This document shows positions 4,483 to 15,810 of a DNA stretch of 64,000 nt, one piece after another. The stretch is taken from assembly GCF_014648395.1 (NCBI RefSeq), contig NZ_BMRA01000002.1:592150-656149 (forward strand), read 5' to 3'. The DNA comes from Micromonospora fulviviridis (GTDB lineage: Bacteria > Actinomycetota > Actinomycetes > Mycobacteriales > Micromonosporaceae). Every line of letters starts with the position of its first letter. Position 1 is the first letter of the stretch. The notes under the pieces were generated by a model. The model searched no databases, was not told the origin of the DNA, and saw nothing but the letters and a program-made list of their open reading frames with translations. A program made the position numbers and the translations under genes.

Positions 4483-4494
4483 CAGCGGCACTGC

Positions 4495-4526
4495 GCGGCT
4501 GGAGGTCGGCGACGACCTCCAGCCGC
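4495..4526. terminator. Hairpin terminator after the cellulase gene
   Basis: A perfect 14-bp GC-rich stem (GCGGCTGGAGGTCG with its complement) closes on a GCGA tetraloop, just after the GH12 stop and before the convergent minus-strand cassette. There is no T-tract, which is common in high-GC actinobacteria. It could work in both directions. Confidence 0.75.
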
Positions 4527-4560
4527 CCGTTCCGGGTTCGGCAGGACAACGTGCGTGTCC

Positions 4561-5070
4561 TCACCCGGGTCCACCACGACGCCACTGATTGGTGCCGCCA
4601 CTGTGCCATACGGTCCGTTGGGCGTCCGAGTAGGACCACAACTCCGAACCGACACTCCAGTCGACCTTCGACTCACACCGCACCGTGGCTGACGATGCCC
4701 CGCCCGGAGCCAGGTGGCCGAAGAGGACCACGACCGACCCCGCCTCCTGCTCGAGTCGTACGGGACGGTCCGATCTGAGCAGATGGCAGGTCAGCGCTCC
4801 GACCGGGTCGATGGACACGGCGACACGCAAATTGAAGATCGGAAGGTCCGAATAACTCTGCGCGTGGAACTCCAACTCCCGGGCATGCGCCCCCACAACG
4901 TCCCGCGCCGATACCGAGCCGATGATCGAATGAGCTCTCGACCACCACAGCTTCTCTTCCTCGTCCGCCCGCTTGCGAACCTCGTTCCTGATGGTCCAAG
5001 CGGCGAACGTGGCGCTCAACCCGGCTACTCCAGCGCCGAGCCAAGCCGGCACTGTCCCCATGTCCACCAT
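4561..5070 (-). CDS. Membrane-anchored unknown protein, ClpX-like cassette gene 3
   Basis: Unrecognised protein of about 169 residues. A single N-terminal hydrophobic segment (roughly residues 5-25, VPAWLGAGVAGLSATFAAW) is followed by a charged stretch and a soluble, probably beta-rich domain of about 120 residues, suggesting a membrane-tethered cytoplasmic domain. The ATG overlaps the stop of the upstream gene as TGATG and has no ribosome site of its own, pointing to translational coupling. Codon use is less GC-biased than in neighbouring housekeeping genes. It is the last gene of the three-gene cassette. No function can be assigned. Confidence 0.75.
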   Translation of the reverse strand: MVDMGTVPAWLGAGVAGLSATFAAWTIRNEVRKRADEEEKLWWSRAHSIIGSVSARDVVGAHARELEFHAQSYSDLPIFNLRVAVSIDPVGALTCHLLRSDRPVRLEQEAGSVVVLFGHLAPGGASSATVRCESKVDWSVGSELWSYSDAQRTVWHSGGTNQWRRGGPG

Positions 5071-5996
5071 CAAGGGAGAACGCTCGCCGAGCTTCGGAAG
5101 TCGATGCCCGACATGATTTGGCTCATGAAGCTGAGGATCGCCTTATCCCTGAGGAATCTGCCGTACGCGACCTCGTACTCGCCGAAGAACTTGCGGTGCT
5201 CGAACGGCTCACGGTCCCGGCTGTTCGGTGACTTGTATGTCTCCCCGCCGTATCCGAAGGTGAACCACAGGCCGGCGAACTCCTTGTTGGCCGGCGCTTC
5301 CACGGTGTACCTCTCCAGCCGTAGCAGCTGATCCGAGGTGCGGACCCATCTCGAAATGTTGACGTCGATCCGTCCTGCGGTGTCGAACACCTCCTCCTCG
5401 TCCGACAGCTGGCCACTGTCGTTCGGCAGGCCTTTGACCAGCTTCCGCATGACCTCTGAGTTACGAATGCGACGCTTGCTGCCCTCGGCATAGAGGCTGT
5501 GCACGATGAACTTGAAGTAGAAGCTGGCCCGGAAAATCGTGAACTCTCTACCCGTCAAATTTTTCAGTTCATCGAGACAGCCCGCGATCAGCGCGGAGAG
5601 CGGATCTCCGAACTTGAGGAACCAGTAGTGGAAGTCTTCCATCCGCGAGCCGTCCCGGCGGACCAGGATGGTGTCGTTTCCGATCTCTACCTTGAAGTCG
5701 TACCGGTCGTCCTGATACACGACGCCGGCTCGGCCCGGCATACCCGAGAGTGCCAGATCGGACTGGTTGAAGAACCGAGCCTTCTCGATTGCCGACAGCA
5801 CGTGCGGATAGACCTTGGAACTGAGTTCCTGCGCGAAGCCCCCTTCGCCGACCTCCGGGATCGGCGGAATCTCCGCCACCACCGCGAACTCGTTGATGTC
5901 AAGTAGCTTGTCGAATATCGAGCGTCGGCCGGAGAACCTTTCCCACGACATCATCTCCTCGCTGGTAGCGTCCCAGCCCGCATCATCGCTGTTCAA
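5070..5996 (-). CDS. Unknown soluble protein, ClpX-like cassette gene 2
   Basis: Unrecognised protein of 308 residues without signal peptide or membrane segments. The start is TTG, supported by GAAGGAG nine bases upstream, and lies 3 bp after the stop of the ClpX-like gene. Near residue 40 a PPIPEV stretch begins a mixed alpha/beta region that faintly recalls the TIGR04255 group, a sporadically distributed bacterial family; I do not regard this as established. The C-terminus is rich in aromatic and charged residues (GEYEVAYGRFLRDKA). Many AT-ending codons mark it as compositionally unlike its flanks. The tight spacing argues that it works with the ATPase, as partner or substrate adaptor. Confidence 0.75.
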   Translation of the reverse strand: MNSDDAGWDATSEEMMSWERFSGRRSIFDKLLDINEFAVVAEIPPIPEVGEGGFAQELSSKVYPHVLSAIEKARFFNQSDLALSGMPGRAGVVYQDDRYDFKVEIGNDTILVRRDGSRMEDFHYWFLKFGDPLSALIAGCLDELKNLTGREFTIFRASFYFKFIVHSLYAEGSKRRIRNSEVMRKLVKGLPNDSGQLSDEEEVFDTAGRIDVNISRWVRTSDQLLRLERYTVEAPANKEFAGLWFTFGYGGETYKSPNSRDREPFEHRKFFGEYEVAYGRFLRDKAILSFMSQIMSGIDFRSSASVLP

Positions 5997-5999
5997 TTC

Positions 6000-7364
6000 T
6001 CAGGACTCCTTCGGCTGATCCGGTTGCGCCTCGGTCTGCACTTCGGGGAGGGGTTCGAGCGGATTCAGCTGCGATTCACGCCGAAAGTCCTCCACCGCGA
6101 GCCGGACGGCGGCTCCCCCTTTAATGTCGGCGGCAACAGTTTTCCGGGCAAGCAGCGGGAACACTACTTGTTGCAAGGCGCGGGCACCCATACGCAGCCG
6201 CACCGCCTCCTTGGCGAGGAACGGAAGGACCCGATCCTCGACCTCGAACGGGATGTCGAGACCGGCGAGAGCGTCCTGCCACAACTTGAGCGGTGACACC
6301 TGGTCGTTGCGTAGAATCTGCTCCAGATGCCCGGTGCTGAGTTCCGTGAAGGGAACTATCACGGGTAGGCGCGCGACAAGTTCGGGCATGAAGCCGTAGT
6401 TCTGTATGTCCTCCGCGGTGACACCGCCGGCGTTGGCGCCTTCGGTCTCGGCGGGCTTGGGCGCGACCCTTCGTTTCGAGCGGACCTCGTTGGAGTCGAT
6501 ACCCGCAAACGCTCCACCCACCAGGATGAGGAGATTCGCGGTGTGAATGTAGTGCTCCGACCAGGAAACGGTCTTTCGCCCGATTGCAACCAGATCGCCC
6601 TCGAGCAGGGTCAGCAGCCGACGCTGCACCGCTCTGCCGCGTTCCGAGCCTCCTCGGCCACCCTCCTTGCCGTCAGGACTGGCGAGTTTGTCAAATTCGT
6701 CGAAGAAGACGATGCCTCGACCGGCGAGCCAGCGGACGTCATCCTGGCTGGGTCGACTCTGCGTCGAGTCAAGGAGCGTCTGCGCCTCTCCGACCAGCAT
6801 TTCCATGATGTCCTCGGGCTGGCCGCCCACGATGCCCGCCTCCACCAGGGTGGAGCAGTCGACAGTGACGAAGGGCAGGCCGATCTGGTGGGAGAGGCTT
6901 CTCATGCTGTGCGTCTTACCGACGCCCGTAGGGCCCACCAGCACGGCCGACGGGAGCCCCCGTTCCTGATCCTGGCCGGCCAACACCCGGGCGAGGTGGA
7001 GCGAGAACAGCACGGAGAGGTAGTCCTTCGCCGTGTCCTGGCCGATGACGGCGGAGAGGCGGGACCGGATGGCGGCAGGGCGGGCTTGCGCCGGTTCGAT
7101 GTGGACCAGGAGGCGTTCGTGCGGCTTCCGGTCTCGATGCTCGTCCGCAGGAAATTCATCCGGCGAGAACTCGTCCAGCATGGGTTCGGTTGACGGGCCC
7201 CATGGACGACCTTCTCGCCGGGTCAGCGGCGGTGGGTCCAACCAGACCGGATCGAACTCATCTGCGTTGTCACGAGAGTCCAATCGGTCAGCCCAGCGCC
7301 GGAGCAGCAGCGCCGAACGCCGTCGTATCTTCGGGACCCTGCGCGGCTTCGGCTCACCCCTCAC
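6000..7364 (-). CDS. Divergent ClpX-like AAA+ ATPase, cassette gene 1
   Basis: AAA+ ATPase of 454 residues most like ClpX. Walker A GPTGVGKT is at 144-151, Walker B VFFDEFDK at 219-226, ClpX-type GGAFAGID at 283-290, the arginine finger in MPELVARLP near 332 and sensor 2 GAR at 393-395. It differs from true ClpX in three ways: the first ~100 residues are a basic/acidic extension with no four-cysteine zinc domain; the pore-1 loop reads GIVG where ClpX has GYVG; and the ClpP-docking IGF tripeptide is absent from residues 291-314. It probably remodels a partner rather than feeding ClpP, which is inference. The GTG start overlaps a possible short upstream frame by 11 bp. Confidence 0.88.
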   Translation of the reverse strand: MRGEPKPRRVPKIRRRSALLLRRWADRLDSRDNADEFDPVWLDPPPLTRREGRPWGPSTEPMLDEFSPDEFPADEHRDRKPHERLLVHIEPAQARPAAIRSRLSAVIGQDTAKDYLSVLFSLHLARVLAGQDQERGLPSAVLVGPTGVGKTHSMRSLSHQIGLPFVTVDCSTLVEAGIVGGQPEDIMEMLVGEAQTLLDSTQSRPSQDDVRWLAGRGIVFFDEFDKLASPDGKEGGRGGSERGRAVQRRLLTLLEGDLVAIGRKTVSWSEHYIHTANLLILVGGAFAGIDSNEVRSKRRVAPKPAETEGANAGGVTAEDIQNYGFMPELVARLPVIVPFTELSTGHLEQILRNDQVSPLKLWQDALAGLDIPFEVEDRVLPFLAKEAVRLRMGARALQQVVFPLLARKTVAADIKGGAAVRLAVEDFRRESQLNPLEPLPEVQTEAQPDQPKES

Positions 7365-7746
7365 GGCGGGCCGCGGAGTCGCCGGCGGTGCCGACCGCCG
7401 TCTGCACGTCCGGGGAGTCTTCTGGCGGAACTGACATCATCTCCGGTCCCCCTGAGCGAGAGGTGCGACTGATGACCAGCGCTGGCGGCGTCGGCTGAGG
7501 TCCGCCTCTCGCGGGACCGCGCAAGGCTCGCCCCGGCGGAATCACTCACGCCTGTGTGGGAGACGTGGTTCCGACTGCGCCTTTCGCGTACGTTAAGCGA
7601 AGCGTCATCTGGACGCCACCCTCTGAACAGACCGCTGGCGGCCGCAGTAGTCGGCGGGCCGCCCACATCGGACAGGAGTGGGTCGCCTGAGTAGCCGGTC
7701 TCGGAACGGCAACCGGCGCACCGGAGTCAGGCGCCGGGAACGGGCG
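7365..7746. other. Upstream region of the ClpX-like cassette
   Basis: A 382-bp gap between the cassette and the aldo/keto reductase gene, both on the minus strand. It should carry the cassette promoter, but I see no clear -35/-10 pair. A minus-strand frame of up to 63 codons (7354-7545) ends 11 bp inside the ATPase gene; it is short and GC-biased and could be chance. No other gene is supported. Confidence 0.4.
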
Positions 7747-8529
7747 TCAGCCGCCGAGGGCGTCGATGTCGCGCATCTCCTCGGCGGTGAGCGAGAAGCC
7801 GAACACGTCGGCGTTGGCCCGGATCCGGTCCGGGGTGACCGACTTGGGGATGACCACGATCTCGTGGTCGATGTGCCAACGCAGCACCACCTGGGCCGGC
7901 GAGACGTCGTGCGCCTGGGCGATCCGGACCAGCACCGGGTCGGAGAGGTCGCTGGTCTTGAACGGGCTGTAGCCCTCCAGCACCACGCCCCGGTCCCGGT
8001 GCGCGGCGTGCACCTGGCGGTCGTACAGCGACGGGCTCCAGCGGATCTGGTTGACCGCCGGGGTCTCCTCGGTGGCCTGGATCAGCTCGTCGATCTGGCT
8101 GACGCTGTAGTTGCTCACCCCGACGGCCCGGGTCAGGTTCTCGTCCCGGGCGGCGAGCAGCTCGCGCCAGACCGGGATGCTGTCGCCGGGCGCGGACGGC
8201 GGCCAGTGGATCAGCCACAGGTCGACGTGGTCGGTGTCCAGGGCGGCCAGGCTCGCCTCGATGGTCTCCCGCTCCCGGCCCACCCGGTCCGGCGGCAGCT
8301 TCGTGGTGATGAAGAGGTCCTCGCGGCGCAGCCCGCTCTCCCGGACCGCCCGGCCGACCTCCTTCTCGTTGCCGTACATCGTGGCGGTGTCGATGTGCCG
8401 GTAACCGGCGTCGAGGGCGGCGAGCACGGCGTCGTACCCGGCGTTGCCGGTGGCCTGCCAGGTGCCGAAGCCGAGCAGCGGCATCCGGACGTCGCCGGTG
8501 AGCGGGACGGTGGGCTGGTCGAGGTCCAT
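7747..8529 (-). CDS. Aldo/keto reductase (AKR5-like)
   Basis: NADPH-dependent carbonyl reductase of 260 residues with the (beta/alpha)8 AKR fold. Visible family features are GFGTWQ near the N-terminus, GYRHIDTATMYGNE with catalytic Asp and Tyr, the Lys in ITTKL, LIHWP with the catalytic His, GVSNY, and the NADPH-binding PKS near the C-terminus. It resembles 2,5-diketo-D-gluconate reductase relatives. I chose the ATG at 8529 because homology begins six residues later; the open frame extends further upstream without family similarity. A second gene of the same subfamily lies at 38475. The physiological substrate is unknown. Confidence 0.93.
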   Translation of the reverse strand: MDLDQPTVPLTGDVRMPLLGFGTWQATGNAGYDAVLAALDAGYRHIDTATMYGNEKEVGRAVRESGLRREDLFITTKLPPDRVGRERETIEASLAALDTDHVDLWLIHWPPSAPGDSIPVWRELLAARDENLTRAVGVSNYSVSQIDELIQATEETPAVNQIRWSPSLYDRQVHAAHRDRGVVLEGYSPFKTSDLSDPVLVRIAQAHDVSPAQVVLRWHIDHEIVVIPKSVTPDRIRANADVFGFSLTAEEMRDIDALGG

Positions 8530-14706: not shown

Positions 14707-15810
14707 ATGGTGCCCGCCCACGGGGGTCGGGCGGCGGAACCGGTCTACCGCCCTGTGCTGGCCGGTCGTCGGGGTGAGCTGGAGGCGCTGGCCCATCTCG
14801 ACGACGCGACCGCTCCGCTGCTCGCTCCGGTCATCGACGTCCACGCGGTGGATCCGTGCACCGTGGACCTGCTCGGCCGGCTGCCGGCCGGGCTCCTTCC
14901 CGCCGTCGACGTGTCGGCGCTGCCCGACTCGCCGGAGAGCGAACTGGTCCGCTGGGGCGTACCGCTGCTGCCGGTGATCGGGCTCGCGGAGGGCGACCGG
15001 CGGCTGGTGGCGCACGGCGCGGCCGCCCGGGCGTACGCGCGGCGGGCGGTGGTCCGGCTGCGGACCGGGCAGGACCGGGGCGGTCCGGACGCCTCCACGG
15101 CCGCGGTCGAGCGGGTGTGGCGGCTGGCCGGGCTGGTGCCGGAGCAGTGCGACCTGCTCGTCGACGCGGGAGACGTGTGCTGCCCGGCCGATGTCCGGCT
15201 GGTCGAGCCCCGGGTCCGGCGGCTGGCGGAGTGGGCCCGGCGGCACGCCTGGCGCTCGGTCAGCGTGGCGGCCGGCGGGATGCCGCCGACGCTGGCCCGG
15301 CTCCCCACCGACGAGCCGGTACGCGTCGACCGCTTCGACTGGCAGCTCTCGCAGCGCCTGGCCGACCTCGGTCTCGGCTACGGGGACTACGGCGTGAGCT
15401 GCGCGGTGCCCGGGGCGGACGGGCCGGGCGACCGGCTGCCGACGCTGCGCTACACCACGACCGGGGCGTGGTGGGTCTACCGGTGGTCGCGCCGGGGTGG
15501 CCGCGGTGACGACCGGTTCGCCGACCTGTGCCGCACGCTCGTCGCGTCCCCGCACTGGACGGCCGCGGGCGCGAGCTTCTCCTGGGGCGACCACGAGATC
15601 CTGCGCCGGGCACGGCGCGGCGCGGGCGCCGGCTCACCGGCGAACTGGATCGCGTGGAGCACGTCGCACCACCTGGCGCACGTGCTGGCCACGCTGCTCC
15701 GCTTGGAGCGGGAACAGCGCGGCGGGCCCTGGCGGGCCGATCAGGACAGCCCCGAGCGGGGGCGTGCCGGCCGGCCGCAGCGCGGCGGCGAGACGCGTCG
15801 CGCCGGGTGA
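14707..15810 (+). CDS. Beta_protein-family protein (phage/defence-associated family)
   Basis: Protein of 367 residues resembling the Beta_protein family, named from a phage protein and often found in mobile and defence-type loci. Family-like features are the N-terminal YRPVLAGRRGELEALAHL, the PVIDVHAVD segment, FDWQLSQRLADLG followed by GYGDYGVSC, and LRYTTTGAWWVYRWS. The C-terminal ~30 residues are a disordered Arg/Gly tail. The biochemical role of the family is not established, to my knowledge. The ATG has no Shine-Dalgarno and lies five bases after a TACATT box, so translation may be leaderless. The convergent HesB-like gene begins 1 bp beyond its stop. Confidence 0.7.
   Translation: MVPAHGGRAAEPVYRPVLAGRRGELEALAHLDDATAPLLAPVIDVHAVDPCTVDLLGRLPAGLLPAVDVSALPDSPESELVRWGVPLLPVIGLAEGDRRLVAHGAAARAYARRAVVRLRTGQDRGGPDASTAAVERVWRLAGLVPEQCDLLVDAGDVCCPADVRLVEPRVRRLAEWARRHAWRSVSVAAGGMPPTLARLPTDEPVRVDRFDWQLSQRLADLGLGYGDYGVSCAVPGADGPGDRLPTLRYTTTGAWWVYRWSRRGGRGDDRFADLCRTLVASPHWTAAGASFSWGDHEILRRARRGAGAGSPANWIAWSTSHHLAHVLATLLRLEREQRGGPWRADQDSPERGRAGRPQRGGETRRAG

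What the first reader, a model, noticed from the sequence alone, without database searches (positions are those of the whole stretch)
4561..7364. Three-gene cassette of ClpX-like ATPase plus two unknown proteins
Seen: three minus-strand genes with a 3-bp gap and a TGATG overlap encode a divergent ClpX-like ATPase, a 308-residue unknown and a membrane-anchored 169-residue unknown, with AT-richer codons than the neighbours. Known: tight AAA+ plus unknown plus membrane-tethered sets are common in defence and conflict systems. Inference: the cassette may be a transferred conflict or protein-remodelling system not yet described.
Basis: partly seen in the sequence, partly recalled or inferred. Interest (0 to 1): 0.72.

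Follow-up and report, generated by a model that had tools for sequence, protein, structure and literature searches.

The report
Imported cassette with ClpP-free ClpX-like motor
A high-GC bacterium carries a small imported set of three genes, one coding for a protein-unfolding motor that seems to have lost its link to the usual protease, the other two like nothing found in the collections searched; what the set does is not known.

Summary
In detail: three tightly packed minus-strand genes, A (454 aa), B (308 aa) and C (169 aa), with clearly lower GC3 than five neighbours. They fill a ~3.26 kb insert between two conserved convergent genes. In four relatives aligned at base level 42-64 bp separate the homologous ends, and none of the 159 other genomes searched in the genus matched A at E <= 1e-38, so acquisition is well supported. 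A has a ClpX-type AAA+ core (best structural match ClpX, Z 27.7, HslU close behind). It lacks the N-terminal zinc domain, has AGIVG for AGYVG in pore loop 1, and lacks the 'xGF' ClpP-docking tripeptide that all 49 other ClpX-like proteins compared here keep. A is therefore best read as a ClpP-independent remodelling motor, in that respect like yeast Mcx1. No defence model, defence neighbour or mobile-element end was found. My reading: an acquired, membrane-tethered A-B-C remodelling complex, possibly a conflict system; the biological role is inference.

The parts
6000..7364 (-). gene A: ClpX-type AAA+ ATPase, 454 aa (start codon uncertain; AAA core is residues ~90-433)
6912..6935 (-). Walker A GPTGVGKT (A residues 144-151)
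6825..6836 (-). pore-1 loop, GIVG (A 177-180) where all 30 housekeeping-type ClpX compared have GYVG
6687..6710 (-). Walker B VFFDEFDK (A 219-226)
6426..6494 (-). low-confidence loop (A 291-313) at the place of the ClpP-docking IGF loop; no xGF tripeptide
5070..5996 (-). gene B: 308-aa protein without detectable relatives
4561..5070 (-). gene C: 169-aa protein with one N-terminal hydrophobic stretch, without credible relatives
4990..5055 (-). putative membrane helix of C (about residues 6-27), followed by basic residues RNEVRKR, suggesting a cytoplasmic C-terminal part
   Evidence: hydropathy; topology is inference from the positive-inside rule
4484..7742 (.). the insert: homology with four relatives' empty site ends at 4483-4484 and resumes at 7742-7753
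4495..4526 (.). perfect 14-bp hairpin downstream of C and of the flanking plus-strand gene, terminator-like
7354..7440 (-). 28-aa upstream ORF whose end overlaps A's GTG start; better ribosome-site-like run than A itself

Best explanation
A three-gene operon acquired by horizontal transfer. Shown: the insert, its absence at the same site in relatives, the three overlapping or adjacent genes, A's complete set of aligned ATPase residues, and A's lack of zinc domain and ClpP-docking tripeptide. Inferred: A forms a ClpX-type hexameric ring that grips and unfolds or remodels proteins but does not deliver them to ClpP; B, the soluble middle protein, is A's dedicated client or substrate-presenting adaptor; C holds the complex at the cytoplasmic face of the membrane. 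ATP-driven remodelling of B (or of a target that B binds) at the membrane is the output. The most likely use is conflict, against phages or other elements, given its import, its variable site and its rarity; this last step is the weakest.
For: Import: the matches of the two flanking genes lie 99 bp or less apart in 19 of the 60 other genomes searched (my count from the listed places), and 42-64 bp separate the homologous ends in the four aligned, against 3.26 kb here; no match to A at E <= 1e-38 in the 159 other genomes of the genus searched; GC3. Motor: Walker A, Walker B, Arg-finger R332 and sensor-2 R395 kept (motif names are recalled); ClpX fold, Z 27.7, rmsd 5.4 over 319 residues, on a model with block means of pLDDT mostly 75-92 over residues ~90-430 outside loops. 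Uncoupling from ClpP: xGF in 49 of 49 other ClpX-like proteins (30 housekeeping-type, 19 divergent), absent in A; the stretch around the loop spans 42 residues in A against 50 in all 30 housekeeping-type ClpX; IGF residues and loop length matter for ClpP binding (PMC7112951, passages). Precedent: yeast MCX1 lacks the IGF element and is thought to act as an unfoldase only (PMC10886707, passages). One operon: 3-bp gap and start-stop overlap.
Against: No physical or functional link between A, B and C is shown beyond gene order. No relatives were found, so conserved co-occurrence, the usual support for a system, is missing. Loop length alone says little: the 19 divergent ClpX-like proteins range from 35 to 60 residues there and still have xGF. 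The pore-1 aromatic residue is Ile, which could mean weak gripping (2 of the 19 divergent proteins also have Ile there). No defence gene lies in the insert, and the same spot in other genomes holds ordinary genes (amidase, sulphate permease, two-component and peptide-synthetase-like genes).
Confidence: 0.4

Rival explanations
1. A is an accessory ClpX that still works with ClpP through other contacts, and B and C are substrate adaptors for regulated proteolysis.
For: ClpX is the closest family by sequence and fold; adaptors encoded near specialised unfoldases are known (general knowledge, not tested).
Against: No xGF tripeptide in the docking loop although all 49 compared proteins have one, including 19 divergent ones; the loop stretch is shorter than in the 30 housekeeping-type ClpX, though not than in some divergent ones.
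Confidence: 0.15
2. The three genes are imported cargo without a selected function here: rare genes in a variable intergenic spot, on the way to loss.
For: No relatives; variable spot with unrelated contents in other genomes; A's GTG start has no ribosome-site-like run and overlaps a 28-aa upstream ORF.
Against: All three frames are open with coding-type base usage (GC3 0.76-0.81 against GC2 0.40-0.54); motor residues are intact; B has a good ribosome-site-like run and tight spacing.
Confidence: 0.2
3. A, B and C are unrelated genes that arrived together by chance; A is a stand-alone chaperone and C an ordinary small membrane protein.
For: Lack of recurrence means co-inheritance is not shown; other genomes hold unrelated genes at this spot.
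Against: Overlapping and 3-bp spacing of all three genes in one orientation, similar GC3, one insert.
Confidence: 0.15
4. B is a very distant relative of the sporadic TIGR04255 family, so that the trio is a variant of a known but uncharacterised accessory type.
For: By eye only: B's order of hydrophobic strands and helices resembles that family (recalled lead).
Against: No NCBIfam hit at E <= 1; hhalign of B against a 10-sequence TIGR04255 alignment scores no better than reversed B or eight shuffles of B.
Confidence: 0.1

Closest known systems
ClpX (bacterial ClpXP unfoldase)
   Same: AAA+ core with Walker A/B, Arg finger, sensor 2, GGAFAG stretch; best structural match
   Different: no zinc-binding domain, AGIVG for AGYVG, RKT for RKH, no xGF ClpP-docking tripeptide; far below NCBIfam cut-offs
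Yeast mitochondrial Mcx1 (ClpX without ClpP)
   Same: ClpX-type motor lacking the IGF element, thought to act as unfoldase only (PMC10886707 passages)
   Different: mitochondrial role in haem synthesis; no sequence comparison was made here
HslU
   Same: Related AAA+ fold; Z 25.3, rmsd 3.6 over 302 residues
   Different: 77.3 bits against a cut-off of 362.45; no HslV-type gene recognised in the insert
IetAS anti-phage system (AAA ATPase plus subtilase; partner recalled)
   Same: An AAA ATPase gene with a partner; weak match limited to about 37 residues around Walker A
   Different: no subtilase hit among the partners
phrog_4339 (phage protein family, function unknown)
   Same: E 2.6e-41, comparable with the best ClpX model (1.9e-45)
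   Different: 552-position model that A matches in two stretches; its members were not examined

Membership tests
ClpX | AAA+ core with Walker A, Walker B, Arg finger, sensor 2 | tested here: met
ClpX | N-terminal C4 zinc-binding domain | tested here: not met
   A has a single Cys (170) in all; CxxC..CxxC found in 30 of 30 housekeeping-type ClpX, 2 of 19 divergent
ClpX | ClpP-docking xGF (IGF) tripeptide | tested here: not met
   49 of 49 others have it, A does not
ClpX | GYVG pore-1 loop | tested here: not met
   GIVG in A; AGYVG in 30 of 30 housekeeping-type
ClpX | RKH loop motif | tested here: not met
   RKT at 263-265 in a shortened segment of the alignment
ClpX | score over the NCBIfam equivalog cut-off | tested here: not met
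   155.5 against 359 and 133.5 against 370.75 bits
HslU | score over the NCBIfam equivalog cut-off | tested here: not met
   77.3 against 362.45 bits
HslU | HslV partner gene beside it | tested here: not met
   insert holds only A, B, C and no Pfam or NCBIfam hit for B or C; the rest of the genome was not searched for HslV
IetAS | IetA over cut-off and a subtilase partner | tested here: not met
   21.4 against 510 bits; B and C without any hit
TIGR04255 (for B) | profile match over cut-off | tested here: not met
   no hit at E <= 1; hhalign at the level of shuffles
known anti-phage systems in general | protection against phage | not testable with these tools
   needs an infection assay

The most novel reading that the evidence does not exclude
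A new kind of mobile conflict system in which a ClpX-derived motor, freed from ClpP, drives a membrane-tethered effector pair (B, C) of new families: a bacterial ClpX-type ATPase turned from proteolysis to effector activation within a transferable cassette. Nothing like it was seen in the paper searches (listings only).
Probability: 0.25. Interest if true: 0.68.

Novelty: new variant of a known kind. Interest (0 to 1): 0.42.

Why it matters
ClpX is normally the feeding motor of the ClpP protease. A bacterial ClpX-type motor that has lost the docking element, and that sits in an imported cassette with two proteins not found in the collections searched, would be a natural test of what such motors do without a protease outside mitochondria, and a candidate for a system that present defence catalogues cannot see because its partners have no models.

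Tried and rejected
Searches without result. B: only itself in 200 order genomes and 296 phylum genomes; genome contigs by six exact 8-residue patterns (13 candidate stretches, none confirmed); viral contigs likewise (13, none); plasmids and phages by tblastn at E <= 1; PDB sequences at E <= 10. C: plasmids gave one 37-bit match to a TraB-annotated stretch at E 0.8, phages none, PDB none, PHROGs one at E 0.049, genus 2 of 160 with itself, where the other (E 8.5e-4) lies in a stretch whose long ORFs I read by eye as kinase and transporter genes and is taken as chance. At E <= 1e-38 or 1e-36 A matched only itself in 394 class, 160 genus and 116 family genomes, and nothing in 150 genomes of another genus of the class, where the tool notes that no positive control was present. 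These sets overlap. Five order genomes with two matches (G111, G219, G239, G255, G294) were not looked into. A in plasmids and phages: matches at 28-36% identity in the rows shown, most annotated ClpX where annotated. A full-length in viral contigs: none confirmed. The genome-contig scan for A residues 92-345 gave 15 loci from 59 stretches, viral contigs 3; none has a B or C relative (BLASTP at E <= 1; one 27-residue hit to C at E 0.22 taken as chance). The pattern scans find close relatives only, and no nr or UniProt search was possible, so 'no relatives' means in these collections at this sensitivity.

B as a TIGR04255 relative: not above shuffles. Structure of B from one sequence: pLDDT 37, not used. 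Inverted 10-bp repeat at the insert ends: 101 of 2000 random pairs do as well, so not evidence of a transposon. Insert DNA in plasmids by distant blastn: none. Tree: A is a long branch outside the housekeeping ClpX clade; its exact place is unsure and long branches meet there. Literature: ClpX-like with anti-phage and AAA+ 0 papers, TIGR04255 with AAA 0, at least two of four ClpX/paralog/zinc/IGF terms 373, 15 listed, one of them opened, ClpX with defence-effector terms 2 listed, not opened; other searches are. Only ClpX and HslU entries fill the 50 rows shown for A's fold; other families are not excluded by that.

Full report
What is there. Three minus-strand genes, A (7364-6000), B (5996-5070) and C (5070-4561), are packed with a 3-bp gap and a start-stop overlap. 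Their GC3 (0.77, 0.81, 0.76) is well below the 0.96-0.98 of five neighbours (two out-of-frame rows dropped). The names I use for the neighbours (secreted glycoside hydrolase with a binding module on the left, aldo/keto reductase, 'AKR', on the right) are by eye and come from no call.

How it got there. I searched the left and the right flanking gene in the same 61 genomes of the genus, the own genome included. In 19 of the 60 others the two matches lie 99 bp or less apart, by my count from the listed places. Twenty stretches were fetched, chosen by me to cover short and long gaps. In the four short ones aligned (G084, G098, G682, G028) homology to the window ends at 4483-4484 and resumes at 7742-7753, with 42-64 bp between. 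Here 3.26 kb lies between. So 4484-7742 is an insert; loss from every relative is possible but less simple. The remaining 16 stretches hold other ORFs in the gap (in one, G139, the left gene was not found in the stretch). Of 36 ORFs picked mechanically there, some probably antisense artefacts, 11 form one related group, one per genome; the member scanned is an amidase with a golvesin C-terminal domain. Ten of the 36 were scanned with Pfam and PADLOC: besides that one, a sulphate permease, a response regulator, a histidine kinase and two peptide-synthetase-like proteins, and four without a hit. The only PADLOC hits were generic ones of the response regulator. The spot is variable, but I saw no sign that it is a defence spot. 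No tRNA or repeat marks the ends: the one tRNA of the window is at 15028 and the end repeats are at chance level; the insert itself holds no recognisable integrase.

How common it is. A matched nothing above ClpX level outside its own genome in any genome set searched: 160 of the genus, 116 of the family, 298 of the order, 394 of the class, 150 of another genus; the sets overlap. B was absent from the 199 and 295 other genomes searched. Pattern scans of genome contigs and viral contigs gave no relative of B, and for A only distantly related ClpX-like proteins, by record title mostly Lachnospiraceae, Bacilli and Moraxella, and three viral contigs, without B or C beside them.

What A is. Pfam, NCBIfam, PDB sequence and fold comparisons all place A with ClpX and HslU. 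Aligned with 30 housekeeping-type ClpX (own genome and 29 loci of the order) and 19 divergent ClpX-like proteins (22 such proteins are shown residue by residue), A keeps the ATPase residues. It has no CxxC pair before the core, GIVG in pore loop 1, and no xGF in the ClpP-docking loop, which all 49 others have. The divergent set came from loci sharing short stretches with A, not chosen by this loop. The predicted model has low confidence there (residues 291-313), as expected of a loop; that stretch is shorter than in housekeeping ClpX (42 against 50 residues) but within the range of the divergent set (35-60). In E. coli ClpX the IGF residues and the loop length matter for ClpP binding, and the RKH motif for substrate recognition (PMC7112951, passages). 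Yeast MCX1, which lacks the IGF element, is thought to act without proteolysis (PMC10886707, passages). By this logic A is a remodelling motor without ClpP. That is an inference from sequence.

What B and C are. B is soluble by hydropathy and has no relatives found. C has one hydrophobic stretch at residues ~9-27 followed by basic residues, so an N-terminal anchor with the rest in the cytoplasm is likely by the positive-inside rule. A first idea that B is a distant TIGR04255 protein did not survive the test available.

How it most likely works. A ring of A, held at the membrane through C, remodels B or a protein that B presents. Import, rarity and a variable site fit a conflict role but would fit other accessory functions. 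I put the complex-level mechanism at 0.4 and a new conflict system at 0.25.

Limits. General protein databases could not be searched. B and C have no alignment of relatives and so no usable model (B alone: pLDDT 37; C was not modelled). A's start codon is uncertain: its GTG has no ribosome-site-like run and overlaps the end of a 28-aa ORF (7440-7354) that has one.

Noticed in passing
window 7354-7440 (-): A 28-aa ORF with a good ribosome-site-like run ends inside the start of gene A, in another frame; it may be a coupled leader, or A's start may lie elsewhere.
   Followed up: partly
L178:84-11082, similar gene order in L180: Lachnospiraceae contigs carry three divergent ClpX-like AAA+ genes close together, in L178 beside an HtrA-like trypsin-PDZ gene and an S8 subtilase; all keep the xGF tripeptide.
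   Followed up: partly
L185:7292-9900, L190:7032-9846: Moraxella ClpX-like genes follow a radical-SAM gene with UPF0004 and TRAM domains.
   Followed up: partly
gap between the two flanking genes, L241-L256: The intergenic spot holds different genes in different members of the genus, up to 7.9 kb with two-component and peptide-synthetase-like genes.
   Followed up: partly
window 4495-4526: Perfect 14-bp hairpin between the convergent ends of gene C and the left flanking gene, terminator-like for both strands.
   Followed up: no
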